DNA of 64,000 bases from Ashinkailepas kermadecensis (lineage: Eukaryota > Arthropoda > Thecostraca > Neolepadidae). The stretch covers positions 58,501 through 122,500 of the forward strand of contig JAOTOM010003820.1 of NCBI GenBank assembly GCA_034440615.1, read 5' to 3'. Of the stretch, positions 5,991-52,110 are shown piece by piece (position 1 is the stretch's first letter; each line of letters opens with the position of its first letter). The position numbers were made by a program, and so were the translations under genes. Under the pieces are notes generated by a model. It was not told the origin of the DNA and did no database searches. It worked only from the letters and a program-made list of their open reading frames with translations.

Positions 5991-6104
5991 GACCTAGCGG
6001 TGCCGTTGGTCCTCCGGGCCCGCCGGGACCTCCGGGACCTCATGCCTCCAGCTGGGGCTGGGACGACGAGGACTTGTCCGGCTCCGGCTCCGGCATGCGA
6101 CCTC
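5991..6104 (+). CDS. COL18A1-like: Collagen XV/XVIII-type gene, Gly-X-Y exon 1 of those seen
   Basis: This is the first recognisable exon of a multiplexin, a basement-membrane collagen whose C-terminal NC1 part releases endostatin. The exon follows 'ggtggcag' and is followed by 'gtgagt'. It starts with two bases completing a Gly codon and ends with one base. It reads a short triple-helical run (GPPGPPGPPGP) and then a non-collagenous interruption with Trp residues. The interruption contains the string DDEDLSGSGSG, an acidic cluster followed by Ser-Gly dipeptides. That is the classical glycosaminoglycan attachment pattern, and fits the known heparan sulfate proteoglycan nature of type XVIII collagen. 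The one-base 3' phase fits the next exon exactly. Exons before this one were not found. The assignment rests on the whole exon set. Confidence 0.86.
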
Positions 6105-6290
6105 GTGAGTATCGTTACAGTCGCCATCGCAGCTGGGGTCACTGAGACCTCGTGGGTACCGCCACAGTCGCCATCGAAGGGGAGGGCCACTGAGACTGCG
6201 TGGGTGCCGTCACAGTCGCCATCTGAGGGAGGACCACTGGGGTCGCTTGGGTACCGTCACAATCATCATCGGAGGGGGCATTCTAACCAC
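6098..6290. repeat. Diverged 48-bp repeat copying the splice donor at 6104
   Basis: The donor region (cctc|gtgagtatcg...cagtcgccatc) is followed by three diverged copies beginning 'acctcgtgggtaccg', 'actgcgtgggtgccg' and 'cttgggtaccg', each with a 'cacagtcgccatc' or similar segment. The period is about 47-50 bp. The unit thus includes the last exon bases and the 5' splice site. Confidence 0.65.
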
Positions 6291-6610
6291 CGTGAGTCAT
6301 AAACGGTTTAAAGGTAGACACGGGGCTGGTCATCAGAGGTGCCAGTTGAGTGTAGCTATAGAGTGTAGCTATAGAGTGTATAATGATAGCTTCTGCAATA
6401 ACAGTGGCGAACACAATGCCACATTTCTTTACCAGACTCAGTTACAACGGACAGTCACGGTCAGCAACGGCGAACTGCTCCGTGAAGCCCACGTGCTCTA
6501 TATGGAATTTTCTGATCCGTGACAGTCGCAGGCAGTGTAGCTCTCAAGTTGGTCACGTAACCGTCCTAACGCTCAGGCTGCCTGGGTGTGACTAGCCAGG
6601 TGACCTGGAG

Positions 6611-6779
6611 AATTACGTGTCGACTGACGGGTCTGGGCACCAGTCCGACGTCGCGTGCGTGGTTCTCAGCTCCGTCAGGTGGAATGGTGGGTGGATAATT
6701 ACGTGTCGACTGACGGGTCTGGGCACCAGTCCGACGTCGCGTGCGTGGTTCTCAGCTCCGTCAGGTGGAATGGTGGGTG
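6611..6779. repeat. 86-bp tandem duplication carrying a splice acceptor and exon start
   Basis: 6611-6696 is repeated almost exactly at 6697-6779. Each copy contains 'ggttctcag|CTCCGTCAGGTGGAATGG', the acceptor and first codons of the next collagen exon. Acceptor positions are 6669 (upstream copy) and 6755 (copy used in my model). Use of the upstream acceptor would add 86 bases and shift the frame. Confidence 0.9.
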
Positions 6780-6931
6780 CACCCGGCCCGGCGGGTCCTG
6801 TGGGACCCCCCGGAACGCCGGGACGTCCTGGACGCGGTCTGCCCGGCATTCCCGGCAAAGACGGAGCACCAGGACTGTCGGGACCTCGAGGACCGCCTGG
6901 GAACTCCTCTGATGCTGGTGGAGTGCTCAAG
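6756..6931 (+). CDS. COL18A1-like: Collagen XV/XVIII-type gene, Gly-X-Y exon 2
   Basis: The exon starts after 'gttctcag' with two bases that complete the codon left open at 6104 (C + CT = Pro). It ends CTC AAG before 'gtatga', in phase 0. It encodes 58 codons. A short lead is followed by about 13 unbroken Gly-X-Y triplets with Gly-Pro-rich composition (for example GPPGTPGRPGRGLPGIPGKD) and then a short non-collagenous tail ending SDAGGVLK. The triple-helical segment lies on the extracellular, trimeric part of the protein. Both splice junctions are copied in flanking tandem repeats: 86 bp twice on the left, about 58 bp seven times on the right. That makes precise splice-site choice uncertain, although phase and frame support this one. 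Confidence 0.88.
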
Positions 6932-7310
6932 GTATGACAGTGCTCCACTCTCACACCCCACCCGCTTCTGATGCTGGTAGTGCTCAAGGTATGGCAGTGC
7001 TTCACTCCCACACCCCATCCACCTCTGATGCTGGTGGAATGCTCAAGGTATGGCAGTGCTCCACTCCCACACCCCACCCGCTTCTGATGCTGGTAGAGTG
7101 ATCAAGGTATGACAGTGCTCCACTCCCACACCCCATCCACCTCTGATGCTGGTAGAATGCTCAAGGTATGACAGTGCTCCACTCCCACACCCCACCCGCT
7201 TCTGATGCTGGTAGTGCTCAAGGTATGACAGTGCTCCACTCCCACACCCCATCCACCTCTGATGCTGGTGGAATGCTCAAGGTATTGCAGTGCTCCACTC
7301 CCACATCACG
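6911..7310. repeat. Minisatellite, 57-59-bp unit, seven copies, each with the exon end and donor
   Basis: The unit is 'gatgctggtggagtgctcaag|gtatgacagtgctccactc...ccacctct'. The first copy is the real exon end and splice donor at 6931/6932. Six further copies follow, several with a 2-bp deletion ('ggtagtgctcaag'). Every copy keeps CTCAAG|GTATGA or a close variant. Confidence 0.92.
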
Positions 7311-7692
7311 CCCCAACTAGTCGAGCGCGAGACACCCGCCCAGCATTACCAGGCTGGTACCACAGTTACCATTTTGACACCACTAACTGGCGGGATTTCG
7401 TATAACATGTCCACTGAACCCCGCTCCTTGCTGGAACAGCCGGCATCAGGACGATGCGTCTTAACCCGAGTCATCGGCTATGTCCACTGAACCCCGCTCC
7501 TTGCTGGAACAGCCGGCATCAGGACGATGCGTCTTAACCCGAGTCATCGGTTAGCAACTGCTTGGTTCCGAGTCGACAGCGGACGCGTTGCCAGCCTCAG
7601 TGTTGCGTTGACCTCCTGTATGACGTGGATGTTCTGGTGACCTTTTGTGTGACCTCGGCGTTCTGTTGACCTGCGTCGTTGCCATCCCTCAG
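7311..7692. repeat. Intron with a 73-bp tandem duplication
   Basis: 'atgtccactgaaccccgctc...gagtcatcgg' occurs at about 7407-7479 and again at 7480-7552 with almost no change. The remaining intron to 7692 is unremarkable. Confidence 0.85.
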
Positions 7693-7782
7693 GGCGACAA
7701 GGGTGACCGCGGACGGCGAGGCAGGCCTGGGCCGCCCGGTCGGTCTGGTCCCATCGGCGAACTGGGCATGCCCGGCTGGCCA
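7693..7782 (+). CDS. COL18A1-like: Collagen XV/XVIII-type gene, Gly-X-Y exon 3
   Basis: A 90-bp, phase 0-0 exon lies between 'gccatccctcag' and 'gtgagtac'. All 30 codons fall in Gly-X-Y register (GDKGDRGRRGRPGPPGRSGP...), ending GMPGWP. Basic residues in X and Y positions are common here. Because the exon is phase-symmetric, skipping it would keep the frame. The intron that follows turns into a tandem array after only six bases. Confidence 0.92.
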
Positions 7783-8335
7783 GTGAGTACACGCGATGGC
7801 AGCTCATGTATACAGGCAGTGATGCAGAACACACGATGGCAGCCCGTGTACAGGCGGTGACGCAGACCACACGATGGCAGCCCGTGTACAGGCAGTGACG
7901 CAGAACACATGATGGCAGCTTATGTATGCAGGCAGTGATGCAGAACACACGATGGCTGCCCGTGTACAGGCGGTGACGCAGACCACACGATGGCAGCTTA
8001 TGTATACAGGCAGTGATGCAGACCACACGATGGCAGCTCGTATACAGGCGGCGATGCAGAACACACGATGGCAGCTCATGTATACAGGCAGTGATACAGA
8101 CCACACGATGGCAGCCCGTGTACAGGCGGTGACGCAGACCACACGATGGCAGCTCATGTATACAGGCAGTGATACAGACCACACGATGGCAGCCCGTGTA
8201 CAGGCGGTGATGCAGAACACACGATGGCAGCCCGTGTACAGGCAGTGACGCAGATCACACGATGGCAGCTCATGTATACAGGCAGTGATACAGACCACAC
8301 GATGGCAGCCCGTGTACAGGCAGTGATGCAGACAC
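7783..8335. repeat. Minisatellite abutting a donor, 38-40-bp unit, about 14 copies
   Basis: The array starts within the donor region of the exon at 7782. Units are of the form 'acacgatggcagcccgtgtacaggcagtgacgcagacc', alternating with a variant carrying 'cagctcatgtatacag'. Copies differ by a few bases. Both strands are largely stop-free, so the long frames here are by-products. Confidence 0.92.
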
Positions 8336-9743
8336 ACGATAAACCAAGTATGCCACTTATGCACAGTTATTCACCATGGATTGCCGCGTTATCCGCTAAA
8401 AGCAACCACCCTGATGGTATGTGATAAATATATAAATAACCACCCTGATGGTGATTAGACAGCCAGAAGACTGTGATAAATATTCACGTTGTGGTTATAG
8501 TAAGGCGTCGTATCCACTGAATTATGGTAGGTTCATGCTATAATTGTAATGTTATACTAATAATGGCAATGCCGAACGCACAGTGGCTCTCTTATTATTT
8601 ACAAGGCAAGGTTGCTGGTGATGAGAACACATAATTGTAACAATTGAAATGATGACGGGCATTATCAGAATAATTATGATGAACATCGTAGCTACTGAAC
8701 GTAATTAATGTAATAAATAATTACACTAGCCACTCACCAATGACCAATATACGAACAGCCGGCGGGAATAGCAACGATTAGAACAATTTACCAACGTTCG
8801 TGGGGTTTCCTTTACTGTGATGTTGTGTGGGTACATTTGCTGTCTGACATTATGGTGAGGAGTGTGCTTTCAAACTTTTTGTCTACATGCAGCAGCGTAA
8901 TGCTATCACATCCAACTCCAGGTTCATTTCCAATTAAGTTGCCGATGCGTGAGGCATTTTAAATTATGCACTCTAGTAGAAGAAGGATGTGCATTGTGTG
9001 TTAGAAATGCAGGAATGGTGACCTTTCTGTCACTGCATTCCTGTTCAGCATCTCAATCCAATAATGCTCCTGCATATTTGTGCAGCATTCAAGGAGGAAA
9101 AAGGTAAGGGTTTTGTGACGTCTGAACTTTAGCATGAAATATTTGCAAACATTGCCAGTGCATTAAATCTCGCTACTTGTTATATCTCGAACTATGTCGA
9201 CAATAATTCATTCTGATGCAGTTTGTCAGTCACGCTTAAATGGATTCTGAATGCGTCCCTCATCGCAAGCCGATGTACTTGCCGTCAAACAGCAGCATGT
9301 AGGAACTCCCATGTATTGCACACAATTAAAAGAATGTATTATGTTAGAGAGTAGTCAAGTTAATATTGATAAGGGTAGAAGCGTTAGTCATACTAATATG
9401 CTATCTCTCTCACTTGAAGGAGCCAATACGGGTACTGATTGGAGGTTGGCATACTGCGACAGTGTGTTTATCCACTCCTACATAGCGCTGTAACTGGTTC
9501 ATTTGCTCACAGTCGGCCATCACGGTAAATGCCCAAAACACGCTACTCCCTTTCAGACTAATGTTTCCTGTCAGCTGCTCTTTGAGTGCCAGCCGCCCAC
9601 TGAGTGGAGCCCCCACAGTACTACCTACCCCCGAGTCCCCGGCGCCCCCCGAAAAAAACCCCCCCCCGACCCCAAGCCCCCACCAAGCAATAACTACTAA
9701 CAACTCCCCGCCCCCTTCCGAGAAGATAGGCACTGAGTGCGGC
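8336..9743. other. Intron sequence, nothing recognised
   Basis: An AT-rich intron with a small duplicated 'ataaccaccctgatggt' motif at 8405-8455. A C/A-rich stretch lies at 9600-9700. No exon-like segment with flanking splice signals was found. Confidence 0.5.
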
Positions 9744-9997: not shown

Positions 9998-10051
9998 GGT
10001 CGCCGAGGAGAGAAAGGCGTCGGTCTGAAAGGACCCAAGGGAGAGCCGGGG
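9998..10051 (+). CDS. COL18A1-like: Collagen XV/XVIII-type gene, Gly-X-Y exon 4 (54 bp)
   Basis: The exon is exactly 54 bp, the classical fibrillar-collagen exon unit, between 'cattgccag' and 'gtgagtgcc'. Its 18 codons read GRRGEKGVGLKGPKGEPG, six triplets with one irregularity (GVGLKG), in phase 0-0. It has no flanking tandem array, unlike most exons of this gene. Small size and low complexity limit proof, but both splice sites and the frame are good. Confidence 0.85.
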
Positions 10052-11266: not shown

Positions 11267-11350
11267 GTGTGCGCCTGTGATGTGAACGTTGGTCCCGAGG
11301 GAGCTCGCTTCGTACCTGTACCAGGAGCGACAGGACCTCTCGGACCAAAG
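11267..11350 (+). CDS. COL18A1-like: Collagen XV/XVIII-type gene, exon 5 with a cysteine-bearing interruption
   Basis: An 84-bp phase 0-0 exon between 'ggctgctcag' and 'gtacgtc'. It opens with a non-collagenous segment VCACDVNVG carrying two cysteines, then GPEGARFVPVPGATGPLGPK, returning to Gly-X-Y. Short cysteine-bearing interruptions are usual in multiplexins, where they can form interchain disulfides. That role is inferred here, not shown. Confidence 0.82.
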
Positions 11351-11679: not shown

Positions 11680-11788
11680 GGGGAGCAAGGCAGTCCAGGT
11701 CTTTCCATCCAAGGCCAGCCAGGCCCAAAGGGCAGTCAGGGAGAGGCCGGTCGAGGTCTGCCAGGCCGCCCTGGAGTCGGCCAACCTG
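11680..11788 (+). CDS. COL18A1-like: Collagen XV/XVIII-type gene, Gly-X-Y exon 6
   Basis: The exon lies between 'ctttcgacag' and 'gtatggag'. It is 109 bp, starting in phase 0 and ending one base into a Gly codon. It reads about 12 triplets (GEQGSPGLSIQGQPGPKG, then GSQGEAGRGLPGRPGVGQPG) with two small breaks in register. The one-base overhang is completed by the exon at 21257 (G + GT), so the intron is about 9.5 kb. That intron is packed with tandem arrays, starting with the 38-bp array 95 bp downstream. Confidence 0.88.
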
Positions 11789-13486: not shown

Positions 13487-14045
13487 TCCACACCCATGCA
13501 CCTCGCTCCCCATCCCTGTTCCTCGCTACGCACCCATACGCCTCACTCCCCATCTCTGCGCCTCACTCCCCATCTCCGCGCCTAGCTACCCACCCATACG
13601 CCTCACTCCCCATCTCCGCGCCTAGCTACTCACCCATACGCCTCACTCCCCATCTCTGCGCCTCACTCCCCATCTCTGCGCCTCACTCCCCATCTCCGCG
13701 CCTCGCTACCCACCCATACGCCTCACTCTCCATCTCCGCGCCTAGCTACCCACCCATGCGCCTCACTCCCCATCTCCGCGCCTCGCTACCCACCCATGCG
13801 CCTCACTCCCCATCTCCGCGCCTCGCTACCCACCCATGTGCCTCTCTACCCATCTCCGCGCCTCGCTACCCACCCATGCGCCTCGCTCCCCATTTATGCG
13901 GCTCGCTCCCCATCCATGCACCTCACTCCCCATCCCTGTCCCTCACTCCCCATTTATGCGGCTCGCGGCTCGCTCCCCATCCATGCACCTCGCTCTCCAT
14001 TACTGCACCTTGCTTTCCACTCCTGCGCCTGACTTCCCATTCCAG
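13487..14045. repeat. Degenerate C-rich tandem repeat, about 20/40-bp unit
   Basis: Repeats of 'cgcctcactccccatctc' and 'gcgcctagctacccacccat' type directly follow the 38-bp array. They are more diverged, with the divergence growing to the right. Confidence 0.85.
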
Positions 14046-21256: not shown

Positions 21257-21393
21257 GTCCGCCCGGATCTCCGGGTCAATCCGGTTCGGGAGGTCACCAG
21301 AGCGGAGGTTACGGAGAGCGCCCCTCGGACTCTGAATCGGCTCGGATCGTGCCGGGAGCAGTCACCTTCCCCGATACGGAGTCCATGCTCAAG
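21257..21393 (+). CDS. COL18A1-like: Collagen XV/XVIII-type gene, exon 7: end of triple helix and start of NC1
   Basis: The exon follows 'ggctttatcag' and its first two bases complete the Gly codon left by the exon at 11788. It begins GPPGSPGQSGSGG, the last triple-helical residues, and moves into a Ser/Gly-rich linker. It ends GAVTFPDTESMLK, which matches the start of the collagen XV/XVIII trimerisation domain (a V-T-F-x-x-x-E-x-M-L pattern). I place the donor at AAG|gtcagc because the 9-residue spacing to the next exon then matches vertebrate family members. A second in-frame donor (AAG|gtgagg, after 21428) would add 12 residues. The tandem array that follows copies this junction. Confidence 0.85.
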
Positions 21394-22075
21394 GTCAGCC
21401 TCACAGTTGGGCCAACGGTCAAGGTGAGGCTTGGCCGGCGCTGCATTCATGTGACGTCATATCAAAGGTCGGCCTCACAGCCAGGCCAACGGTCAAAGTG
21501 AGGTTTGACCGGCGCTGCACTGATGTGACATGTCATGTCAAAGGTTATCCTCACAGCCGGGTCAACGGTCAAGGTGAGACTTGGCCGGCGCTGCACTGAT
21601 GTGCCGTGTCATGTCAAAGGTCAGCCTCACAGCCGGGCCAACGGTCAAAGTGAGGTTTGACCGGCGCTGCACTGATGTGCCGTGTCATGTCAAAGGTCAG
21701 CCTCACAGCCGGGCCAACGGTCAAAGTGAGGTTTGGCCGGCGCTGCACTGATGTGACTTGTCATGTCAAAGGTCAGCCTCACAGCCGGGTCAACGGTCAA
21801 GGTGAGGTTTGACCGGCGCTGCACTGATGTGACGTGTCATGTCAAAGGTCATCCTCACAGCCAGGCCAACGGTCAAGGTGAGGTTTGGCCGGCGCTGCAC
21901 TGATGTGACGTGTCATGTCAAAGGTCATCCTCACAGCCGGGTCAACGGTCAAGGTGAGACTTGGCCGGCGCTGCACTGATGTGCCGTGTCATGTCAAAGG
22001 TCAGCCTCACAGCCGGTCCAACGTTCAAAGTGAGGTTTGGCCGGCGCTGCACTGATGTGACTTGTCATGGTAAAG
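21386..22075. repeat. Minisatellite, 75-76-bp unit, nine copies, each with the exon-7 donor context
   Basis: The unit is '(t)caaaggtcagcctcacagcc', then 'gggccaacggtcaaggtgag', then 'gtttggccggcgctgcactgatgtgacgtgtcatg'. The first copy overlaps the real exon end CTCAAG|GTCAGCCTCACAG. Each unit has two donor-like strings (AAAG|GTCAGC and CAAG|GTGAGG). TCAAAGGTCA also matches an extended nuclear-receptor half-site, which may be chance. Confidence 0.9.
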
Positions 22076-22611: not shown

Positions 22612-22704
22612 AGGTCAGACGTCAGTCCAGTCGGTACGCTGGCATTTGTCATCGATGAAGAGGCCCTTCTTGTGCGAGTCGGCGCTGGATGGCAATACGT
22701 CTCG
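22612..22704 (+). CDS. COL18A1-like: Collagen XV/XVIII-type gene, exon 8: NC1 trimerisation module
   Basis: A 31-codon phase 0-0 exon between 'cgactcacag' and 'gtaagc'. It reads RSDVSPVGTLAFVIDEEALL then VRVGAGWQYVS. This fits the trimerisation domain of multiplexins, whose strands carry the pattern P-x-G-x-L-x-x-V ... E-x-L-x-V-R-V-x-x-G-W/F-x-x-V. The module sets the three chains in register at the start of NC1. The donor (TACGTCTCG|GTAAGC) sits inside a 30-bp tandem repeat of ten near-perfect copies, so at least ten equivalent donors follow one another. The reading frame stays open across the array, so use of later donors would lengthen the protein in steps of ten residues. Confidence 0.88.
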
Positions 22705-23560
22705 GTAAGCCCACACAGCAGCATGTACGTCTCGGTAAGCTCACACAGCAGCATGTACGTCTCGGTAAGCTCACACAGCAGCATGTACGTCTTGGTAAGC
22801 TCACACAGCAGCATGTACGTCTCGGTAAGCTCACACAGCAGCATGTACGTCTCGGTAAGCTCACACAGCAGCATGTACGTCTCGGTAAGCTCACACAGCA
22901 GCATGTACGTCTCGGTAAGCTCACACAGCAGCATGTACGTCTCGGTAAGCTCACACAGCAGCATGTACGTCTCGGTAAGCTCAGACAGCAGCATGTACGT
23001 CTCGGTAAACCCGGATGACAGTACGTCTCGGCAAGTTCAGATGGCAGTGCGTCTCGGTAAGCCCAGATAGTAGCGCGTCTTGGTAAGTTCAGATACTAGT
23101 GCGTCGCGGTAAATCAATATGACAGTACGTCTCGGTAAGCCCAGATAGTAGGACGTCTAGGTAAGCCCAGATGGCGTACGTTTTGATAAGTCCAGATGAC
23201 AGGACATCTAGTTAAGCCCAGCTTGTAGTACGTCTGAGTAAGCCCAGATATACGTGCGTCTCGGTAAGCCCAGATGGCAGTACGTTTCGGTAACTCCAGA
23301 TGTTATGACGTCCAGGTAAGCCCAAATGGCAGTGCGTATCTGTAAGCTCAGATAGCAGCACTTCTGAGTGAGCCCAGATAGCAGCACTTCTGAGTAAGCC
23401 CAGATAGCAGTGCATCGCGGGAAGTTCGAACGTCACTATGTGTCGGGAGATCCAGGTGAAAGTACGTCTTGATAAGCTCGGATGGCAGCACATCTCGGTA
23501 AGCCCAGATGTCGGTACGTTTCGGTAAGCCCGGCTGAAAGTACGTCTCGGTAGGTGTAGA
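22694..23560. repeat. Minisatellite, 30-bp unit carrying the exon-8 donor, ten copies then a degenerate tail
   Basis: The unit 'tacgtctcg|gtaagctcacacagcagcatg' repeats ten times from 22694 to about 22993 with only isolated changes (ttggta, cccaca, tcagac). From 23000 to 23560 it decays to 'agcccagatagcagtacgtctcggta' forms with 34-40-bp spacing. Each good unit holds the last three codons of exon 8 and a consensus GTAAG donor. Confidence 0.95.
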
Positions 23561-24065: not shown

Positions 24066-24300
24066 AGGTGTGGGCTAACTCCTGAGGAAGTCACCTGTCG
24101 TGATGCAAGTGCTGGCCAAACCCTGAAGTGGTTACCTGCTGTAATATAAGTATGGGCCATCTGCTGAGGCGGTTACCTGCTGTGATATAAGTGTGCGCCA
24201 TCTCCTCAGCAAGTTACCTGATGTGATATAAATGTTGGCCAAACACTGAGGAAGTTACTTGCTGTCATATAATTGTTGGCCAAACCCTGAGGCGCTCGTC
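24066..24300. repeat. Degenerate 45-bp repeat abutting the exon-9 acceptor
   Basis: Five to six copies of 'ctgaggaagttacctgctgtgatataagtgttggccaaac' type run up to within about 15 bp of the acceptor at 24310. Confidence 0.8.
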
Positions 24301-24310: not shown

Positions 24311-24433
24311 CTGGGCTCTGTAGTGGCATACCAGCCGACTGAGGCTCCAACCGTCACCACTCTACGGCCGGGCCTGGACACACCAGCTCCGTTCGAGTCG
24401 GACAGCCTCGTCTCCCAGGCGGACGGACCCACC
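24311..24433 (+). CDS. COL18A1-like: Collagen XV/XVIII-type gene, exon 9: NC1 hinge
   Basis: 41 codons, phase 0-0, between 'gtacgcacag' and 'gtgagtag'. It starts LGSVVAYQPTEAPTV. The leading LG completes the trimerisation module (W-x-x-V-x-L-G in relatives), which supports direct joining to the exon at 22704. The rest is rich in Pro, Thr and Ser with acidic residues (TTLRPGLDTPAPFESDS). That is typical of the protease-sensitive hinge between the trimerisation and endostatin domains, from which endostatin is released. Confidence 0.83.
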
Positions 24434-26859: not shown

Positions 26860-27054
26860 TTGCGACTGGCGGCGCTCAATGAGCCACACAACGGCGACAT
26901 GATGGGACTGCGCGGCTTCGACTACGCCTGCTACCGACAGTCACGCAGATCAAACCTGGGCGGCACGTTCCGCGCTATGTTGTCGTCACGCACACAGAAC
27001 ATCGACAGTATCGTGCGAACCAGCGACCGCCGCCTGCCCGTGGTCAACATCAAG
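26860..27054 (+). CDS. COL18A1-like: Collagen XV/XVIII-type gene, exon 10: endostatin domain, N-terminal part
   Basis: 65 codons, phase 0-0, between 'acccacatgtcag' and 'gtgagcg'. It reads LRLAALNEPHNGDMMGLRGF, then DYACYRQSRRSNLGGTFRAM, then LSSRTQ..DSIVR..DRRLPVVNIK. This matches the first third of endostatin very clearly (L-x-A-L-N, M-x-G-x-R-G-x-D, C-Y/F-x-Q, G-T-F-R-A-x-L-S-S-R, S-I-V-R, P-V-V-N). The first conserved cysteine (YAC) is present. The zinc-ligand histidine of mammalian endostatin XVIII at the position before L-x-A-L-N is Arg here, and no His-x-His start is seen. The exon end CCCGTGGTCAACATCAAG and its donor are amplified in the array that follows. Confidence 0.95.
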
Positions 27055-28005
27055 GTGAGCGGACTGTGTGTGCCGTGCCCGTGGTCAACATCAAGGTGAG
27101 CGGGCTGTGTGTGCCGTGCCCGTGGTCAACATCAAGGTGAGCGGGCTGTGTGTGCCGTGCCCGTGGTCAACATCAGGGTGAGCGGGCTGTGGTTGTGTGC
27201 CGTGCCCGTGGTCAACATCAGGGTGAGCCGGCTGTGTGTGCCGTGCCCGTGGTCAATATCAAGGTGAGCGGGCTGTGTGTGCCGTGCCCGTGGTCAACAT
27301 CAGGGTGAGCCGGCTGTGTGTGCCGTGCCCGTGGTCAACATCAGGGTGAGCGGGCTGTGTGTGCCGTGCCCGTGGTCAACATCAAGGTGAGCGGGCTGTG
27401 TGTGCCGTGCCCGTGGTCAACATCAGGGTGAGCCGGCTGTGTGTGCCGTGCCCGTGGTCAACATCAAGGTGAGCGGGCTGTGTGTGCCGTGCCCGTGGTC
27501 AACATCAGGGTGAGCGGGCTGTGTGTGCCGTGCCCGTGGTCAACATCAGGGTGAGCGGGCTGTGTGTGCCGTGCCCGTGGTCAACATCAGGGTGAGCGGG
27601 CTGTGTGTGCCGTGCCCGTGGTCAACATCAAGGTGAGCGGGCTGTGTGTGCCGTACCCGTGGTCAACATCAAGGTGAGCGGGCTGTGTGTTCCGTGGTCA
27701 ACATCAAGGTGAGCGGGCTGTGTGTGCCGTGCCCGTGGTCAACATCAGGGTGAGCCGGCTGTGTGTGCCGTGCCCGTGGTCAACATCAAGGTGAGCGGGC
27801 TGTGTGTGCCGTGCCCGTGGTCAACATCAGAGGCGTTGCCGTCGTGTCCATCGGGCTGTGTGTGCCGTGCCCGTGGTCAACATCAAGGTGAGCGGGCTGT
27901 GTGTGCCGTGCCCGTGGTCAACATCAAGGTGAGCCGGCTGTGTGTGCCGTGCCCGTGGTCAACATCAGGGTGAGCGGGCTGTGTGTGCCGTGCCCGTGTC
28001 AAAGT
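27036..28005. repeat. Minisatellite, 41-bp unit carrying the exon-10 end and donor, about 22 copies
   Basis: The unit is 'cccgtggtcaacatcaag|gtgagcgggctgtgtgtgccgtg'. The first copy is the genuine exon end and donor at 27054/27055. Every later copy repeats the last six codons (PVVNIK) and GTGAGC, with an A/G variant that turns AAG into AGG in about half of them. One copy is replaced by 'agaggcgttgccgtcgtgtc' (about 27829-27853). Because 41 is not a multiple of 3, use of a later donor would shift the frame. Confidence 0.96.
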
Positions 28006-29660
28006 CAAGTTGGGACTGTTAGTTGCTACGCGTTAGCCCATCTTACCGTCTGGGCATATACGCAATGCATTGAACATGCACTACACCTGGCCGCTAAGCA
28101 TGGTAAGTAACGCCAGTATTCGGCATTAAAACAGCATAACCATACTTTTAACGTGCGCGAATATGTCATTGCACTCCTGACAACAGTTTTGGCGGTGATA
28201 ACAGACCACTCACGGGTCTTCGCTGGGAGCAGCACTACTGCTTTATTCTCCTTGACACGCCCCGATGAGAGTGCGAAAAAGGCAAAGACAAAGCTACGAC
28301 ACCTTCCATGACGGCTGCCATCGAGCTGCCAATTATAATTGCTTTTCGCGCCAGTGTGCTTGTGCTGTGCTCGGTTCCCCACCACCTCCACCATCCATTA
28401 CGATGGGCCATTCATTACCACCTGTACGATGGGCTCATTCATTGGCTCCGAGGGCTATATAAGTGCTCTGGTGTCTATGACCGACCTACCTAACCTTATT
28501 ACAGTCGATACCTCGCCGGACCTTATTCGCTGAAAAGCGTGCGACCAGCGCTACGCATCCAACGGGTAGGCACGGGTCTCTATCACGTTGGGTACGTCTC
28601 CTGGTCGTCTATATACCCTATTCGGTCCTACCCTTCCAGCCCCGGGGCTTGCGACATGCCAAACCAGTTCTTGCATCCTCCGAGCCAATGCACAATCCGT
28701 TTCCCACGAGCAGAGAACAGAGGTGAACTATCGGGCAATGTTTTGCAGCTTTCACGATGTCTAGCGTTAGACTTCCAACGAACGCAGTGCAATGGCTTTC
28801 CTTGACGGCTTCACGTGCATACCGTGCTCGAAGCCCATCTGCACCCTGGGTCCCAGAGGCCAGCGGGAATTTGCGGTCAAAGAACCATTTGATTTCAGTT
28901 AATGCCTCTGAAGTGTTCATTTCGTCGCTCCCTCTCTCAGTTAAAAGTTTTATAAACGCAAATTATATACAACAATGTTAATATTCTGGACAATTTGGAC
29001 AAGTTTAAGCTCTTATTACCATTACTCGGGAACGTTTGGTATATAGGAGGGCGTCTCGCAGATTGGCTGCCTCGCTTATAAATGTACTTCATATAGTAAA
29101 GTAATTCCAGGCAAATATCCAACATCATGGGTGAAGTATCGCTTGCCATGTCCGTGCTGAATCAATTATACCGTGTGTACTCTTGTGCGCATGGTACTAT
29201 CCACGTCTATCTGCCGGTTACTGGTGACACGATCCGAGCGAAAAAGCGCCACGTGTACCCCTGAGCTCCCGAAGGCCCACCATTCCGCCGTGGACGTAAA
29301 TACTCTCCCACCCCCCTAACCACCTCGTCGTCGGGGAATGTACAACGCTATCATCACCGGTCCGGGTTGTATTTCCGACGTCATCCTCGCTTGACGCTGC
29401 CATATCCACGGAGGGTTACCTGACTGCGGCCATTAAGCGGCCATCGCTATTTGACCTAAATGCTATTTTGTATGGACGTTCGTCATAGGAGCAGAGCTAC
29501 GCCACTGAATGCCCAGCTGGAGCGCATCCCTCGAGTTCCCTTACAGTTTGGATTGTATAACTTGTCCGCACCACGGCAGGTAGGTCGGCTATAATTGTAA
29601 TTTTTGGTCCCGCTGGTGCAAGGGTCGAGCGCATTGGAAGGGGAGGGGAAGACAGGGATT
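28006..29660. other. Intron between endostatin exons, first part
   Basis: Mostly unique sequence. 'ccattacgatgggccattcattaccacctgtacgatgggctc' near 28397-28437 is a small duplication. I saw no exon-like segment in phase. The intron from 27055 to 33110 is about 6 kb. Confidence 0.45.
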
Positions 29661-33110: not shown

Positions 33111-33226
33111 GGCGATCTTCTGTTGAAGAGCTGGAAAGGCTTGTTCAATGGCGCCAACGGAGAATTGGCGCAAAAACCGAAAATCTACAGTTTTGATGGA
33201 AAAGACGTCATGGAAGATCTTACGTG
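33111..33226 (+). CDS. COL18A1-like: Collagen XV/XVIII-type gene, exon 11: endostatin domain, middle part
   Basis: The exon lies between 'gctttatctcag' and 'gtaagttc', 116 bp, starting in phase 0 and ending two bases into a Trp codon. It reads GDLLLKSWKGLFNGANGELA then QKPKIYSFDGKDVMEDLT(W). This is the second part of endostatin (L-x-x-S-W-x-x-L-F-x-G-x-x-G and I-Y/F-S-F-D-G-K/R-D-V). The mammalian zinc-ligand Asp that directly follows N-x-K is Gly here, with the Asp one position later. The two-base overhang is completed by the first base of the exon at 34739. Confidence 0.95.
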
Positions 33227-34738: not shown

Positions 34739-35027
34739 GCCGCAGAAGATCGTCTGGCACGGCGCCAACCAGTACGGCGAGCGTGACCTCGACTCGTACT
34801 GTGACGCCTGGCACTCAGCCGACTCAGACGCGGTCGGCATGGCCAGCAGTCTGATGCACAGCCAGCTGCTGCAGCAGCACAAGTACTCGTGCGATAACCG
34901 GTTCGCGGTGCTGTGTATCGAGGTGGTGACAACCCGGCGCCGGCGGCGGCGCTCGGCCGAGCCCGACCGCCTGCTCACTGCCGAGCAGTACGAGAGTCTG
35001 CTGCGCAGGCTGGACGACGACGAGTAG
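34739..35027 (+). CDS. COL18A1-like: Collagen XV/XVIII-type gene, exon 12: endostatin C-terminus and stop
   Basis: The exon follows 'ccgctgcctatcag', completes the Trp codon from 33226 and runs to TAG at 35025-35027. It reads PQKIVWHGANQYGERDLDSY, then CDAWHSADSDAVGMASSLMH, then the YSCDNRFAVLCIEV end of endostatin. All four disulfide cysteines of the domain are present over exons 10 and 12 (YAC, SYC, YSC, LCI). After LCIEV the protein continues for about 30 residues not found in vertebrate endostatins. That tail has a run of six arginines (TTRRRRRRSAEPD) and an acidic end (LLRRLDDDE). The Arg run could bind heparin or be a furin-type cleavage site, but both are inference. GC content is high, unlike the introns. 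Confidence 0.95.
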
Positions 35028-35170
35028 GTGGCGCGGCCGGCGGCGGAGACGTCACGCCGCACCTGGTAACGTGGCAGACCGGCGGCGGAGACGTCACGCC
35101 TGGTGACGTGGCAGACCGGCGGCGGAGGCGTCACGCCGCAAGACACCGCGCGCCTGATGACGTGGCCGGC
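35028..35170. repeat. GC-rich triplication starting at the stop codon
   Basis: Three units beginning 'gtggc(a/g)' and sharing 'ccggcggcggagacgtcacgcc' follow directly after TAG (35028, about 35072 and about 35109). A partial fourth begins near 35160. This is the likely start of the 3' UTR. Confidence 0.85.
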
Positions 35171-39895: not shown

Positions 39896-39929
39896 CCGAG
39901 TCGTAGTTCTGACCCGAGAATAGCCTGCT

Positions 39930-40150: not shown

Positions 40151-40210
40151 TTGTACTGCTGGTCGGGTCACATTTCTGACCAGGTCACAGGTTTGGCTAG
40201 GTCGAGCTAG

Positions 40211-40979: not shown

Positions 40980-41039
40980 GGGGAGCAGCAGCGACACCTT
41001 CCACAGCTGTGTCTGTGTCTGAGTATCGCTCGCACCAGC

Positions 41040-42330
41040 CGACCTCCATCCGTCCGTGCCGTCACCGCGTCCTCTGGCCCAGCCGACCATCCGTCCGTGC
41101 CGTCACTGCGTCCTCTGGCCCAGCCGACCACCATCCGTTCGTGCCGTCACTGCGTCCTCTGGCCCAGCCGACCATCCGTCCGTGCCATCACTGCGTCCTC
41201 TGGCCCAGCCGACCGCCATCTGTCCGTGCCGTCACTGCGTCCTCTGGCCCAGCCGACCACCATCCGTTCGTGCCGTCACCGCGTCCTCTGGCCCAGCCGA
41301 CCATCCGTCCGTGCCGTCACTGCGTCCTCTGGCCCAGCCGACCACCATCCGTTCGTGCCGTCACTGCGTCCTCTGGCCCAGCCGACCATCCGTCCGTGCC
41401 GTCACTGCGTCCTCTGGCCCAGCCGACCACCATCCGTCCGTGCCGTCACCGCGTCCTCTGGCCCAGCCGACCGCCATCTGTCCGTGCCGTCACTGCGTCC
41501 TCTGGCCCAGCCGACCACCATCCGTTCGTGCCGTCACTGCGTCCTCTGGCCCAGCCGACCATCCGTCCGTGCCATCACTGCGTCCTCTGGCCCAGCCGAC
41601 CACCATCCGTCCGTGCCGTCACTGCGTCCTCAAGCCCAGCCGACCACCATCCGTCCGTGCCGTCACTGCGTCCTCTGGCCCAGCCGACCACCATCCGTCC
41701 GTGCCGTCACTGCGTCCTCTGGCCCAGCCGACCACCATCCGTCCGTGCCGTCACTGCGTCCTCAAGCCCAGCCGACCACCATCCGTCCGTGCCGTCACTG
41801 CGGCCTCTGGCCCAGCCGACCATCCGTCCGTGCCGTCACTGCGTCCTCTGGCCCAGCCGACCATCCGTCCGTGCCGTCACTGCGTCCTCTGGCCCAGCCG
41901 ACCATCCGTCCGTGCCGTCACTGCGTCCTCTGGCCCAGCCGACCATCCGTCCGTGCCGTCACTGCGTCCTCTGGCCCAGCCGACCGCCATCCGTCCGTGC
42001 CGTCACCGCGTCCTCTGGCCCAGCCGACCACCATCCGTCCGTGCCGTCACTGCGTCCTCTGGTCTAGCCGACCGCCATCCGTCCGTGCCGTCACTGCGTC
42101 CTCTGGCCCAGCCGACCGCCATCTGTCCGTGCCGTCACTGCGTCCTCTGGCCCAGCCGACCACCATCCGTCCGTGCCGTCACCGCGTCCTCTGGCCCAGC
42201 CGACCACCATCTGTCCGTGCCGTCACTGCGTCCTCTGGCCGCCCAGCCGACCGCCATCCGTCCGTGCCATCACTGCGTCCTCTGGTCTAGCCGACCACCA
42301 TCCGTCCGTGCCGTCACTGTGTCCCCTGGC
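41040..42330. repeat. Minisatellite, 38-44-bp unit, about 30 copies, containing the GST stop codon region
   Basis: The unit is 'gtcactgcgtcctctggccc' plus 'agccgaccaccatccgtccgtgcc', with or without the 'acc(g)cc' insert. On the minus strand each unit contains 'ctgggccagaggacgcagtgacggcacggacgg'. That is a copy of the last codons and stop of the GST gene (CTGGGCCAGGGGACACAGTGA at 42314-42334). The array thus extends the gene end downstream. Confidence 0.93.
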
Positions 42331-42616
42331 CCAGCCACTGGCGAAACATGCTGATGCCGTCGCTGTTGCATTTGTCGTAGTAGGGCAACGTGGTCTGCAG
42401 ATGTTGCTTCCAGGCGTGCAGGCGCGGATAGGAGTCGGTGCGGTAGCGGAACGCCTCCAACTGCGAGATGGTGGCCAGCAGAGAGAGGTCGGCTATCGAC
42501 AGCCGGTCGCCGACAGCGTACCGGCCGCTCAGGAACGCGTCCAGGTAGTCGAGCGACTGCTTCAGCGCGTTCGCCTTGGTCTCGTCCGGCACCGACCCGT
42601 GATGGATCACCGGCTC
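42314..42616 (-). CDS. Cytosolic glutathione S-transferase, last exon (C-terminal domain)
   Basis: The minus-strand exon starts at 42616 after 'gtggccgtccccag' and ends with TGA at 42314-42316, 101 codons including the stop, phase 0. It reads EPVIHHGSVPDETKANALKQ, then SLDYLDAFLSGRYAVGDRLS, then IADLSLLATISQLEAF. This is the GST C-terminal helical domain with its hallmark G-D-x-L-(S/T)-I-A-D-x-(S/A) N-capping box. The following Y-P-x-L-x-x-W and LPYYDKCNSDG fit arthropod delta/epsilon enzymes. GSTs conjugate glutathione to electrophiles in the cytosol. The exon joins the one at 51189 (DYF + EPV) in phase 0. The C-terminus WLGQGTQ is copied into the downstream array. Delta versus epsilon class cannot be decided without the N-terminal domain. 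Confidence 0.9.
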   Translation of the reverse strand, partial: EPVIHHGSVPDETKANALKQSLDYLDAFLSGRYAVGDRLSIADLSLLATISQLEAFRYRTDSYPRLHAWKQHLQTTLPYYDKCNSDGISMFRQWLGQGTQ

Positions 42617-42629
42617 CTGGGGACGGCCA

Positions 42630-43260
42630 CATCGTGAGAAGGCTGGCCGCATGGTAAGATGGCCGGCCACATGGTGAGATGGCCGGCCACATCGTGAGAA
42701 GGCTGGCCACATCGTGAGAAGGCCGGCCACATGGTGAGATGGCCGACCACATCGTGAGAAGGCTGGCCACATCGTGAGAAGGCTGGCCACATCGTGAGAA
42801 GGCTGGCCACATGGTGAGATGGTCGGCCACATCGTGAGAAAGCTGGCCACATCGTGAGATGGCTGGCCACATCGTGAGAAGGCTGGCCACATCGTGAGAT
42901 GGCCGGCCACATCGTGAGAAGGCTGGCCACATCGTGAGATGGCTGGCCACATCGTGAGAAGGCTGGCCACATCGTGAGAAGGCTGGCCACATGGTGAGAT
43001 GGCCGGCCACATCGTGAGAAGGCTGGCCACATCGTGAGAAGGCCGGCCACATGGTGAGATGGCCGGCCACATGGTGAGATGGCCGGCCACATGGTGAGAA
43101 GGTTGGCCACATGGTGAGATGGCCAGCCACATGGTGAGATGGCCGGCCATATGGTGAGATGGCCAGACACATGGTGAGATGGCCGGCCACATGGTGGAGA
43201 GTGTTGGAACATGAGGTTAAATGGACGGACACATCGCGAGATGGTCGGCCGCATGGTGGA
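42630..43260. repeat. Minisatellite, 21-bp unit, about 27 copies, abutting the GST acceptor
   Basis: 'ggccacatcgtgagaaggctg' and 'ggccacatggtgagatggccg' forms are mixed. The array starts within about 14 bp of the splice acceptor of the last GST exon (minus-strand 'gatgtggccgtccccag'), and the intron end itself carries the unit's 'gatgtggcc'. Confidence 0.95.
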
Positions 43261-45560
43261 GAGTGTTAGAAAATGGATCCAAATGGCATAAACGGAGCAC
43301 ATCTGCGGCACGATAAGGACCACGTCGTCACACTGTATGCTGCTTCGACAATTCGGCATATTACCCTCACGTGTGAGATACGCTACGGCATGCTGCCTTC
43401 ACGTGTTGGATACGGAAGAACTTCCTCCTAAGTTGGACCCGATAAAAGTATATGAAACTGGAATAAGTTGACCTAGGAGAGCCAAGTTGCAGTAACTTCA
43501 AGCTTTTTCTCCCAGCCACTCTCTCCGATCTTATGCCTGCAGCCCTGGAGTCACATAACGACCCTTATGCCCTTAGTAATAGCACCTTATGCTGCTCACT
43601 TGTACGATCATGATCAAATATAGAAGACTGGGCAATAAGTCCTTGTGTCTAAGACCCCTGAGAGGCCCCTGCGGAGTCCCTCGGACCTTTAAGCATGGAA
43701 GTCTCAGACCTTCACAGGGCCCCTCAGGTCGCAAGGTCCCAAGTGGTGTTCCGCAGGGGTTCATCATTCCAGAGGGGCAAAGGGGTGGTCGAGAGTTTGT
43801 CATATGCATTAGCTCAACCAGGATTTTCCTAAGGGCTAAGGTCCTTAGGCCTACCGATAAAAACAATTGCAATGAAACAGGGACTGGTTCCGAGGCGATT
43901 CGCGCACCGAACTCTTAGGGCTTTGGGTGGTGAAAATCTGAAAATGTGTTATTTGATATATTGTTTGATGTAGTGTATATTTGGTTGCTCGGGGATCTTG
44001 GATGCGCCTCTGGTGATATGCCACAAAGCATGATGACGCAGTGAGGAGGGACTCAGTCCCTGTGGGTGGACTCAGAAAAAAAACAAGTCGACTCAGAACA
44101 CTGATGCAGGACTAATTGTTTTGTTTTGGGCAGTACTCGTCGGTCACGAAGCAGCGTAACTTCAGAGATGTGCGATCGCAGCGCCTCTGGTCGCGAAAGG
44201 TGGAACTATGCGCCGTGTTTGGTCAGGCCGCGCTCCAGAGAGTCCTGCTGCATGTTGTTCTTGGGCTGCATGTTACTAAAGAGAACAAGAGTTGAAACCA
44301 GGGGGGGATGAGTAAGGAACTAGTCACCAAATTCAAATACCCCATTCGCGTTTATTAATGCCCAAAACAGTTCCTGGTATGGAAGGAGGTATGCAGTCAT
44401 AGATCATGAACGTTTCATACTTAATCCCCAAGAGAGCTGAAGGCTCCTCATAACTGTTCAGGGGACGGGGAAGGAGTGGACACGTCGCAGAGCCGCAGCC
44501 ATTGGGTGTAATCATGTCAATAGTTCACTGACAGATGGAAGAGGGGCCCGCTTCTCCCTTGTGTAAGAGACAGTGAAGCTAGTTGAGCCTACAGGTAAGT
44601 TGAGCCACCCCCATGATCTCACCTCCTATGGTATCACGAGAACTTATAACCCAGCTGCCTACACTTCGAAGAAAGTCTCCATTTTGGTTGGACGGGGGGA
44701 GGGGAAGGGGGTTGGAAGGGGTAGATGTCTGGTGAACCCAAAACAAAAATGTGTTTTTTGAGTCCAAAGTAATTTTTCCTTGACTTGGAGATGTTTTTCT
44801 TTTCCTTGATTTGTAACAGTTAGGTTGCGGATCAAAGCACACAATTGTAGGCTTTCTCTTGATATCCACCCAAGCCACTTTGACGTTGGATGATAAGGAG
44901 ATGGACAGTCATATTTTATCTGAAGTGTGGTGGGTATGGGGCTAGTTGAGCAATCGCGACCGGGGCAAGATGATCCGTGGATGAACCGTGGCCTCTTAAT
45001 CTGTTGCGTGCTGCTGATGTTTTTCTCATGAATCATGACATAAATTGGCTTAAAATTGTTGTTCAGCCTATTGGCATTGTGCAGATTGTTATGTTATGAG
45101 TTATAGCTTTCATGTTTGTATACCGGAACACGTGAGATGACAAAAAGTGACCATAAGCAACCTGCAACACTAAACGTAACGTTTCCAATTAGTCGTCACA
45201 ACATTTGTTTACATAAATAAGGCATGTGAGCAACTTACCCCACCATTAGGATCAACTTCCCCCACTCCTGGGGTAAGTTGAAACAAGGGCGATACGACCG
45301 AATAACTCAAAATATAACTGACAAATATTTGTCTCACCACATGCCCTCAAGGTCCAAGCATAATAGCTCCACTTACCTTGACTTCCATATTTGGTAAATG
45401 TCCCTTGTAAAAGCTGGCATTTCCCCCGAGGCACTATGTGCCTTTTTGTCAGGAAAGTCCCATCCGGTTCCAGAAACTCCAGAAACCAGTGACATCCGTA
45501 CTACCTAAAATTTGCGTCAGGGGAGATGTGGACAAACGGATCTGAATGGAGCCCATCCTA
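43261..45560. other. GST intron, unique part
   Basis: About 2.3 kb with no recognised exon on either strand. Open frames near 43573-43918 and 44579-45036 have no family resemblance. The polypurine stretch at 44690-44725 is simple sequence. Confidence 0.45.
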
Positions 45561-49160: not shown

Positions 49161-51188
49161 TACGAACTATTCGGTCGCGCAGATATTGGACCTCTTTCTG
49201 AGACACCTTGTTATTTTCAGGGCAGCTACATTCGTCTGTCTTGTACTAGCATCGAGCAACATAAAAGAGTGGCATGAAAATGATGTTTTCTTTCTATGCT
49301 GGTTCCACGCGCCTCTTGTTCGACACTACCTTATTCAATTTCTTGAATTTTCCGTATAGTCCTCTTAATTTCTGCTTCACATTTCTCTGGGTTGTGATTC
49401 TATCCCTTCATTTTCCATATTCCTGCTATTTCTGATGTCACAGATTTCATGGCAAGCTTTCGCATATGGCAGTCGGATTTTTTTTTCGAGAACTCTATTA
49501 TTGGTTAGCAGTTGACTTTGGGCAAGGGTGTGCCGCCCCCAGAAGGAAATGTTTCGATTTATGTCTTGGTCCAACGGAGCCTCCAAGATTGGCGATGGGG
49601 AGGGGGGCATCCACCCCCTAGAGACATGAGGGTCCAGGGGACCCACTAATGACACCACAGGGGCACCTCGCGCCTCCAGAGGATCACAGCGGGCCCATAA
49701 TAGTAGCCAAAAAGGTAAGGGACAGACACCCTTCGCCTGGAGGTCAGGGGGCAGAAGATATGCTAAGACCCGAAAAAGGCATCAATCCGAGGAAAAGCGA
49801 ATTATTTTAGGTAATGCATACTGGGCCTCCAAAGTCCCGGAGACACCTACCAGGTCACGGCTTCCTCAACCCCTGTGCGAAACCTGACTACGCCCTTGAG
49901 TAATGCCACTATTGAATATTCGGTTAAAACACCGCTAACTGCGATAATGTAAGTCGGAAAGCTTACCTGAGCTAAGAACAATTCAGTTTCAGCCAGGTGT
50001 GGTACACAAATTTACCATTTGCCACTGAGATGTATATCCAGCCTTAAAGTCTGAGAATGAAGAAATGAAACTGCCTGTTTTTCAAAGCATTTGGGTTCAA
50101 TGTTGATGAAAATGTCTGAAAGCAAAACACATGCTATGTAGGTATCCAAGACCATACAGGATATTCGGGATGCTCAAACGCCACATGTGAGAATGATCAC
50201 AGCTTACACTTTGATGTTTAGAACTAAAATGAAGCTAATTGATGTGGTCACTTTTGGTTTCAGATTTGCCGTCTCAAATCAAGCATGCAAAGAACAGTTC
50301 ATGACCCACACTAAGCAACACCGAATACTATTCTTAAGTGTTGTTCAAAACCATCATCAGGTTTGCATCAGCTACGATAAATATTGGATTGCTTTGACCA
50401 CTCTTTGAACCGAAGTGTTACCATTTTCTACAGTATCATTCATCCTAATGTTTCATGATATTTAGCATTGGGCACGACATGAATAGGATGGACGGCTCGT
50501 AGATACTTTTCTGCAATGCTACGGTCTTTATTTTTAGTTGCATGGTGTACACTAAGTGTATTATTTCCACGGAAAGCACCGCACACTAACTCTACTGCAT
50601 AGGCTCTGTCCGTGTTTACCTTTAAATTATTTGTTCCGGGGCAAACATATTTTATCAGATGCAATAACATGTTAATGTTAAAACAGAAAATGTTGCTGGT
50701 CGCGAAAGTTTAAGACAACGGTATTTCAGTATACGATAAATTAACCAAAACAAGGACTAGCAAAAACTGTTATTCCAACAATGACGTCGAAATCAAGATT
50801 CCAAAATCATTCACCATTACAGAAACAGCATTGTGGTCCACTTAATGTCTGCCTTGTAAGCAGCACAGTTATACCCTGCCGACCAGCAAGGCCACTTAAC
50901 TACTGTCTCTGACCGTATGACCCACGCTCAGAAACGTCCAGTCCATAGTGGTATATCATGCATACAGTCCAACTGCCGGTCGGCCGTGGAGGAATCGTCT
51001 ACGCTTTGTCTTGTTTCCCGACAGTTGTCTGCCAGGCATAATACCACGCTGTGCATCCCCAGAGAAGCCCTCACCAGTTACTTGATTTCCGCACGCAGAT
51101 AATGCTTTTCCTCCAGGTCGCACAAAATCCTATCGATTCCTTTAACCCAACGCCTGACCTCATGTTGCCAGATGCGAATTCGGCTCAC
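49161..51188. other. GST intron, nothing recognised
   Basis: AT-rich, unique-looking sequence. A run of T lies near 49479-49487. No coding or RNA feature that I can support. Confidence 0.45.
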
Positions 51189-51339
51189 AAAGTAGTCGTG
51201 GATAGCCCTGTTGAGTGTGGCTAGATCGAACTGAAGCAGCCTGTCGATGGTGGCGCGCCTCTGGTGGTCCTCGGCCGGGTACAGGTGGTCGTGTTTGGGC
51301 CGGCCGTGGGCGCTGACCAGGTACTGCAGGATGGCGCGA
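51189..51339 (-). CDS. Cytosolic glutathione S-transferase, middle exon (end of thioredoxin-like domain, linker, start of helical domain)
   Basis: The minus-strand exon starts at 51339 after 'gtgtgtgttgcag' with one base finishing a Ser codon, reads 50 codons and ends at 51189 before 'gtgagc', phase 0. It encodes (S)RAILQYLVSAHGRPKHDHLY then PAEDHQRRATIDRLLQFDLA and TLNRAIHDYF. S-R-A-I-L-x-Y-L marks the end of the GSH-binding domain, where the Glu-Ser pair contacting the glutathione gamma-glutamyl group would lie. The Glu itself would come from the preceding exon. L-Y-P-x-D/E and R-x-x-(I/V)-D-x-x-L-x-F-D-x-x-T-L are typical of arthropod delta/epsilon GSTs. The first 37 bases and the acceptor are repeated 14 times upstream. 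The N-terminal exons were not found with confidence. Confidence 0.9.
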
Positions 51340-52110
51340 CTGCAACACACACCCACACACGGCCGTGGGCGCTGACCAGGTACTGCAGGATGGCGCAACT
51401 GCAACACACACACCCACACACGGCCGTGGGCGCTGACCAGGTACTGCAGGATGGTACCACTGCAACACACACCCACACACAGCCGTGGGCGCTGACCAGG
51501 TACTGCAGGATGGCGCGACTGCAACACACACCCACACACGGCCGTGGGCGCTGACCAGGTACTGCAGGATGGCGCGACTGCAACACACACCCACACACGG
51601 CCGTGGGCGCTGACCAGGTACTGCAGGATGGTACCACTGCAACACACACCCACACACAGCCGTGGGCGCTGACCAGGTACTGCAGGATAGCGCGACTGAA
51701 ACACACACCCACACACGGCAGTGGGCGCTGACCAGGTACTACAGGATGGCGCGACTGCAACACACACCCACACACGGCAGTGGGCGCTGACCAGGTACTG
51801 TAGGATGGCGCGACTGCAACACACACCCACACACGGCCGTGGGCGCTGACCAGGTACTGCAGGATGGTACCACTGCAACACACACCCACACACAGCCGTG
51901 GGCGCTGACCAGGTACTGCAGGATAGCGCGACTGCAACACACACCCACACACGGCAGTGGGCGCTGACCAGGTACTGCAGGATGGCGCGACTGCAACACA
52001 CACCCACACACGGCCGTGGGCGCTGACCAGGTACTGCAGGATGGTACCACTGCAACACACACCCACACACGGCCGTGGGCGCTGACCAGGTACTGCAGGA
52101 TGGTACCACT
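51302..52110. repeat. Minisatellite, 59-bp unit carrying the GST exon acceptor and first codons, 14 copies
   Basis: The plus-strand unit is 'gccgtgggcgctgaccaggt', then 'actgcaggatggcgcgactg', then 'caacacacacccacacacg'. On the minus strand each unit is a polypyrimidine-like 'gtgtgtgggtgtgtgttgcag', an AG acceptor and then the codons for RAILQYLVSAHG. The copy nearest 51302-51361 is the real exon edge. Variants are ggtacc for ggcgcg (AILQYL kept, R changed) and cagt for cgtg. A fifteenth, diverged copy lies at 52220-52262. Confidence 0.96.

What the first reader, a model, noticed from the sequence alone, without database searches (positions are those of the whole stretch)
6098..52110. Minisatellites are seeded on exon-intron junctions across two unrelated genes
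In the collagen and GST genes, the repeat unit of at least eight tandem arrays includes a real exon edge. Donors: 6104, 6931, 21393, 22704, 27054. Acceptors: 6755 and 51339/51340. Stop codon: 42314. Four more arrays start or end within about 20 bp of a splice site or stop (7783, 24310, 35028, 42617). Units differ in length (21-86 bp) and sequence, so this is a repeated process rather than one repeat family. Exonic parts are copied too, which a purely intronic process would not do. Established knowledge does not lead me to expect minisatellites to prefer splice junctions. A mechanism tied to transcription, R-loops, splicing intermediates or retro-repair at exon edges is possible inference.
Basis: partly seen in the sequence, partly recalled or inferred. 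Interest (0 to 1): 0.9.

Follow-up and report, generated by a model that had tools for sequence, protein, structure and literature searches.

The report
Barnacle minisatellites copying exon edges
In DNA that is likely from a barnacle, eight short-repeat arrays contain the edge of a predicted exon, so that copies of a splice site or stop codon lie beside the real one; such repeats are known from amphioxus as 'mirages', and here they likely arose by ordinary tandem duplication of DNA, with a preference for exon edges that their GC-richness only partly explains.

Summary
I rebuilt two genes: a collagen XV/XVIII-type multiplexin (12 exons, one open frame) and the last two exons of a delta-like GST closest to barnacle proteins. 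Of their 28 exon edges, 8 lie inside tandem arrays and 14 lie inside or within 20 bp of one. Random placement of the same arrays in the same gaps gives about 2.6 and 3.8 (P about 0.001 and below 0.0003). Matching founder units for GC raises the expected number of edge-spanning arrays from 0.8 to 2.3, so GC-rich edges explain part of the excess. Donors carry the spanning signal (5 of 12); acceptors (2 of 14) and stops (1 of 2) are not significant alone. Arrays reach at most 39 nt into an exon. The class is already described: tandem duplications of exon/intron boundaries, 'mirages', in amphioxus Adh, globin, troponin C and PGBD5 genes. New here are an apparent arthropod case, an array built on a stop codon, and a local enrichment test. 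I favour DNA-level tandem duplication of unspliced sequence, tolerated when the exon-proximal site still works. None of 12 spliced junctions occurs in the window; decoy donors in the one array tested show no sign of selection. Splicing, long reads and a genome-wide test were out of reach.

The parts
5991..6104 (+). multiplexin exon (collagenous); donor after 6104
   Evidence: open frame, phase and splice sites
6099..6277 (+). array, 47-bp unit x3.8, contains donor 6104 (6 exonic nt)
6606..6779 (+). array, 86-bp unit x2, contains acceptor 6755/6756 and 24 exonic nt
6756..6931 (+). multiplexin exon (alternative start 6765, same phase)
6906..7305 (+). array, 59/116-bp unit, contains donor 6931; 6 of 6 decoy GT
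7693..7782 (+). multiplexin exon; array 7609-7672 ends 20 bp upstream, array 7790-8340 starts 7 bp downstream
9998..10051 (+). multiplexin exon without a nearby array
11300..11350 (+). multiplexin exon without a nearby array
11680..11788 (+). multiplexin exon without a nearby array (next array 95 bp away)
21257..21393 (+). multiplexin exon (IVPGAVTF segment)
21391..22069 (+). array, 76-bp unit x9, contains donor 21393 (3 exonic nt by TRF); 8 decoy GT
22612..22704 (+). multiplexin exon (trimerization domain)
22688..23552 (+). array, 26-bp unit (17 exonic + 9 intronic nt) and a more uniform 30-bp sub-array next to the exon, contains donor 22704; 25 decoy GT in 31 copies
24068..24294 (+). array ending 16 bp before acceptor 24311
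24311..24433 (+). multiplexin exon
26860..27054 (+). multiplexin exon (endostatin part)
27035..28009 (+). array, 41-bp unit x23.5, contains donor 27054 (20 exonic nt); 21 decoy GT
33111..33226 (+). multiplexin exon (endostatin part)
34739..35027 (+). multiplexin last exon with stop; array 35037-35140 starts 9 bp later
41035..42336 (-). array, 44-bp unit x30, contains the GST stop codon and 23 nt of the last exon; 29 of 29 decoy TGA
42314..42616 (-). GST last exon with stop
42624..43286 (-). array, 20-bp unit, ending 7 bp from the GST acceptor
51189..51339 (-). GST internal exon
51301..52125 (-). array, 59-bp unit x13.9, contains acceptor 51339/51340 and 39 exonic nt; 13 of 13 decoy AG

Best explanation
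These arrays are 'mirage'-like minisatellites that likely arose when short stretches of unspliced DNA straddling an exon edge were tandemly duplicated and then amplified by ordinary slippage or unequal exchange. An edge-spanning duplication leaves the exon-proximal splice site (or the first stop codon) in place with its full exon context, so the mRNA is predicted to stay unchanged, whereas duplications reaching deeper into the exon are predicted to be purged. That would set the observed ceiling of about 40 exonic nt. Extra births at the edge are inferred to come partly from the GC-rich sequence there, since most arrays are GC-rich too; a residual excess stays unexplained. Shown: arrays, copies, decoys, local enrichment, GC dependence and absence of 12 tested spliced junctions. 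Inferred: duplication mechanism, splice choice and selection.
For: Units differ in length and sequence between arrays, which I take as separate events. Copies hold contiguous exon-intron DNA, with 62 decoy donors carrying GT, 14 decoy acceptors carrying AG and 29 decoy TGA stops. None of 12 spliced junctions tested occurs in the window. Array coverage is 0 at 41-60 nt inside exons, 25% in the last 10 exonic nt and 50% at 21-80 nt into the intron. GC is 64% in exons, 58% in arrays and 45% elsewhere. GC matching raises the expected spanning arrays from 0.81 to 2.26, against 8 observed, P 0.0013; with at least 15 exonic nt, 1.5 expected and 6 observed, P 0.0025. Decoy GTs in the diverged part of the 22704 array fit neutral decay: 15 of 21 intact, 12.6 expected, P 0.20 (22 copies listed, the first left out). 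In two arrays the copied exon part encodes residues conserved in relatives (SRAILQYLVSAHG in GST, PVVNIK in endostatin), so there the exon is the source. The amphioxus papers report the same arrangement and undisturbed splicing (passages).
Against: GC does not account for the whole excess. There is no RNA evidence that the exon-proximal sites are used. In array 27035-28009, 9 of 21 decoy donors differ from the real one at only one of 28 bases, and the splice choice between them is assumed. At the GST stop the last residues (GQGTQ) are not those of the four closest relatives, so there the array may have rewritten the exon instead of copying it. Acceptors show no significant spanning excess.
Confidence: 0.72

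Rival explanations
1. Survivorship and GC alone: arrays are born anywhere in GC-rich sequence, and edges merely look favoured because exons are GC islands whose interiors are purged.
For: Arrays and exons are both GC-rich; GC matching lifts the expectation about threefold.
Against: 8 observed against 2.26 expected after GC matching, P 0.0013; 6 against 1.5 with at least 15 exonic nt, P 0.0025. This is one window picked for the pattern.
Confidence: 0.4
2. A transcription-linked process (R-loops or replication conflicts at GC-rich, G-skewed exon ends) actively starts duplications at exon edges, especially donors.
For: Donors 5 of 12 spanning, acceptors 2 of 14; coding-strand G excess in 12 of 14 edge arrays, sign test P 0.013.
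Against: Skew does not differ clearly from other intronic arrays (rank test P 0.15); one of the 8 anchored and one of the 6 near arrays are C-rich on the coding strand.
Confidence: 0.2
3. The arrays are traces of intron gain by tandem duplication of AGGT-containing exon sequence (Rogers model).
For: PMC3087553 proposes this link for amphioxus globins (passages).
Against: Each spanning intron array here sits at one end of its intron and does not fill it; where both ends have arrays (intron 6105-6755) the units differ (47 and 86 bp). One array lies at a stop codon, not in an intron. Intron age was not tested against relatives.
Confidence: 0.05
4. The arrays are assembly artefacts or collapsed haplotypes.
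For: Some arrays are nearly perfect (40210-40981, 99% matches).
Against: Variants are interspersed within arrays (two kinds of exon head in the 59-bp array; diverged 26-bp and uniform 30-bp copies at 22704).
Confidence: 0.05
5. Decoys are functional and give alternative 5' splice sites or protein variants.
For: Ten decoys in the 30-bp sub-array at 22734-23004 would add residues in frame, ten per unit.
Against: 52 of 62 decoy donors would shift the frame or add a stop; no selection on decoy GT in the one array tested.
Confidence: 0.05

Closest known systems
'Mirage' minisatellites of amphioxus (Adh3, globin BflGb6/BflGb9, troponin C; PMC3087553, PMC3902484, passages seen)
   Same: Minisatellite-like tandem duplications containing a 5' or 3' exon/intron boundary, with many AG/GT signals retained in the copies, differing units and homogenised copies
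   Different: Reported in a cephalochordate; here apparently in an arthropod, with eight edge arrays in one 64-kb window, one of them on a stop codon; splicing was tested there (RT-PCR) and not here
Lancelet PGBD5 60- and 108-bp repeats at splice sites (PMC3902484, passage seen)
   Same: Tandem repeats overlapping 5' and 3' splice sites
   Different: Imperfect repeats in a single gene, the 108-bp one a triplication
Rogers-type intron gain by tandem duplication (cited in PMC3087553)
   Same: Tandem duplication of splice-site-bearing sequence
   Different: No new intron is evident here; arrays sit inside existing introns or beyond the stop
Ordinary GC-rich intronic minisatellites
   Same: Unit size, GC richness, multi-unit periods
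   Different: The unit includes an exon edge

Membership tests
mirage minisatellites | tandem array whose unit contains an exon/intron boundary | tested here: met
   7 splice edges inside arrays (two with only 3 and 6 exonic nt), plus one stop codon
mirage minisatellites | copies carry AG/GT splice signals | tested here: met
   62 decoy GT and 14 decoy AG; some copies have lost GT, e.g. 6 of 21 in the diverged 22704 copies
mirage minisatellites | arrays do not disturb normal mRNA splicing | not testable with these tools
   no RNA of this species; relatives' GST proteins join the exons without inserts
mirage minisatellites | length instability between alleles or tissues | not testable with these tools
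   one haplotype only
mirage minisatellites | occurrence in cephalochordates | tested here: not met
   closest named GST relatives are barnacles; I take this as the taxon in which mirages were reported, not as a structural requirement
Rogers-type intron gain | both intron ends derive from the duplicated exon segment | tested here: inconclusive
   arrays lie at single ends; the one intron with spanning arrays at both ends has different units; opposite intron ends were not aligned to the units
retro-repair from spliced RNA | spliced exon-exon sequence in the copies | tested here: not met
   0 of 12 junctions found with up to 3 mismatches in 20 nt; the GST junction upstream of 51339 could not be tested because that exon was not found

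The most novel reading that the evidence does not exclude
Exon edges, donors above all, are genuine birth hot spots for minisatellites in barnacles, beyond GC content: a transcription- or splicing-coupled duplication process repeatedly copies the same kind of site, so that two distant phyla evolved rows of decoy splice sites independently.
Probability: 0.27. Interest if true: 0.75.

Novelty: new member of a known kind. Interest (0 to 1): 0.48.

Why it matters
It apparently takes mirage repeats from lancelets to arthropods. That makes two questions testable in one genome: whether exon edges seed minisatellites, and how the spliceosome ignores rows of similar splice sites next to the real one. 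It also warns gene-prediction and variant-calling software about decoy splice sites.

Tried and rejected
Uniform coverage: 28% of the window is array, so 8 of 28 edges inside arrays equals the raw coverage expectation. I rejected that as the null because exons are nearly array-free (8% covered, none at 41-60 nt from an edge), and used gap-wise placement with up to 40 nt of overhang instead. Selection on decoys: no sign in the one diverged array tested. Spliced-RNA origin: none of 12 junctions. Acceptor and stop spanning enrichment: not significant. In one search one off-register row (21859) was dropped from the 21393 array, and the 7782 array (6 copies, no GT) was not counted as spanning. GST N-terminal exons were sought with the two closest relatives and not found in the window. 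Literature searches listed no paper that I recognised as an arthropod mirage. They cover only the held open-access library; some searches listed 25 of 53, 15 of 17, 20 of 21 and 10 of 378 papers, and one search found none. A recalled DOI for the amphioxus Adh paper was not held.

Full report
What the window is. A GST read from two minus-strand exons is 81% identical to a protein without an organism name (P0001), 78% to Pollicipes pollicipes and 70% to Amphibalanus amphitrite, so the DNA is likely from a barnacle; the species is unknown. The plus-strand collagen gene is a multiplexin: 12 exons form one open frame of 514 residues with collagen, trimerization and endostatin domains; the best matches of the search are crustacean and insect proteins, many named collagen XV/XVIII (made with the 10-exon model; 120 of 472 hits listed). 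The junctions of the trimerization and endostatin part are continuous with the relatives' proteins. The GST exons join as in relatives. GST residues 1-65 were not found, so the upstream intron likely exceeds 12.6 kb.

The observation. TRF gives 81 rows, which merge to 42 arrays of period 10 or more covering 28% of the window. The 14 exons have 28 edges: 12 donors, 14 acceptors and 2 stops. Eight lie inside an array: donors 6104, 6931, 21393, 22704 and 27054, acceptors 6756 and 51339, and stop 42314. Six more lie within 20 bp (5991, 7693, 7782, 24311, 35027, 42616). Fourteen have no array within 20 bp.

Is it chance? Keeping every array in its own gap and allowing it to reach 40 nt into exons, 2.6 edges are expected inside arrays and 3.8 within 20 bp; 8 and 14 are seen (P 0.0003 to 0.002 in three runs; and P 0.00025). 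Dropping the compact 5.9-8.4 kb region leaves 5 of 22 against 1.1 (P 0.003). Shifting the whole array pattern around the window gives 2.9 array ends within 40 bp of an edge on average against 14 seen (fraction reaching it 0.0003). Requiring at least 15 exonic nt gives 6 against 1.7 (P 0.004). Donors alone give 5 of 12 against 1.2 (P 0.003), acceptors 2 of 14 against 1.2 (P 0.35), stops 1 of 2 against 0.13 (P 0.12); within 20 bp acceptors give 6 of 14 against 1.8 (P 0.0025). Raw coverage alone would also predict about 8 edges inside arrays if exons did not matter, but exons are almost free of arrays (8% covered).

GC content. Exons are 64% GC, arrays 58% and the rest 45%. With arrays collapsed to founder units, 0.81 spanning arrays are expected without and 2.26 with GC matching, against 8 (P 0.0013). 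Counting only arrays with at least 15 exonic nt, 1.5 are expected and 6 seen (P 0.0025). GC explains part of the excess.

Anatomy. The edge arrays hold contiguous exon-intron DNA. Array 27035: 41-bp unit, 21 decoy donors. Array 51301: 59-bp unit, 13 decoy acceptors, each followed by a copy of the first codons of the exon. Array 22688: a 26-bp unit made of 17 exonic and 9 intronic nt, diverged and further from the exon, and a uniform, probably younger 30-bp sub-array next to the exon. Array 41035: 29 decoy TGA copies beyond the GST stop. Array 6606 has one decoy acceptor, array 6099 two decoy donors with 6 and 8 mismatches in 24. Exonic parts range from 3 to 39 nt. Of 62 decoy donors, 52 would shift the frame or add a stop, while the 10 in the 30-bp sub-array would not. 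Decoy GTs in the diverged 22688 copies fit neutral decay (15 of 21, expected 12.6, P 0.20). None of 12 spliced junctions is present.

Mechanism. The simplest account is DNA-level tandem duplication across the edge followed by standard minisatellite amplification (multi-unit periods of 116, 123, 129 and 153 bp are seen), tolerated because the exon-proximal site is untouched. That exon context favours the proximal site is recalled general knowledge of splicing, not tested here. The absence of a spanning excess at acceptors fits a higher cost of duplicated AGs, which is inference. A transcription link rests on a G-rich coding strand in 12 of 14 edge arrays against 10 of 23 others, rank test P 0.15.

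Known kinds. I read passages of PMC3087553 and PMC3902484: amphioxus Adh3, globin, troponin C and PGBD5 genes carry tandem repeats of exon/intron boundaries, called mirages; PMC3087553 reports length differences between haplotypes, somatic instability at Adh3 and undisturbed splicing, and calls the generating mechanism unclear. I also saw passages of PMC8416341, PMC12783039, PMC2688266, PMC4039745 and PMC3152781; none of those passages reports mirages. No arthropod case was recognised in the listings of searches, several of which were cut short.

Verdict. A real, ordinary-in-kind but striking cluster: an apparently new taxon for mirages, a stop-codon example, and a local edge excess that GC only partly explains. 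Whether edges are hot spots genome-wide is open.

Noticed in passing
61751-63840: Non-LTR retrotransposon pieces: endonuclease and reverse transcriptase matches.
   Followed up: partly
22704-23004: The uniform sub-array next to the exon has a 30-bp unit; its ten decoy donors are the only ones of 62 whose use would add residues in frame without a stop.
   Followed up: partly
42314-42336: The GST C-terminal tail (GQGTQ) lacks the basic residues of the four closest relatives; the last 23 nt of the exon lie in the array, so the array may have rewritten the exon end.
   Followed up: partly
24467-24530: A perfect (TA)32 run begins 34 bp past the last exon base of donor 24433.
   Followed up: no
11884-13488: A C-rich array (38-bp unit, 42 copies) starts 95 bp after donor 11788 and is open in all three forward frames.
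   Followed up: no
1-5649: No tandem array scoring 50 or more in the first 5.6 kb, although arrays cover 28% of the window.
   Followed up: no
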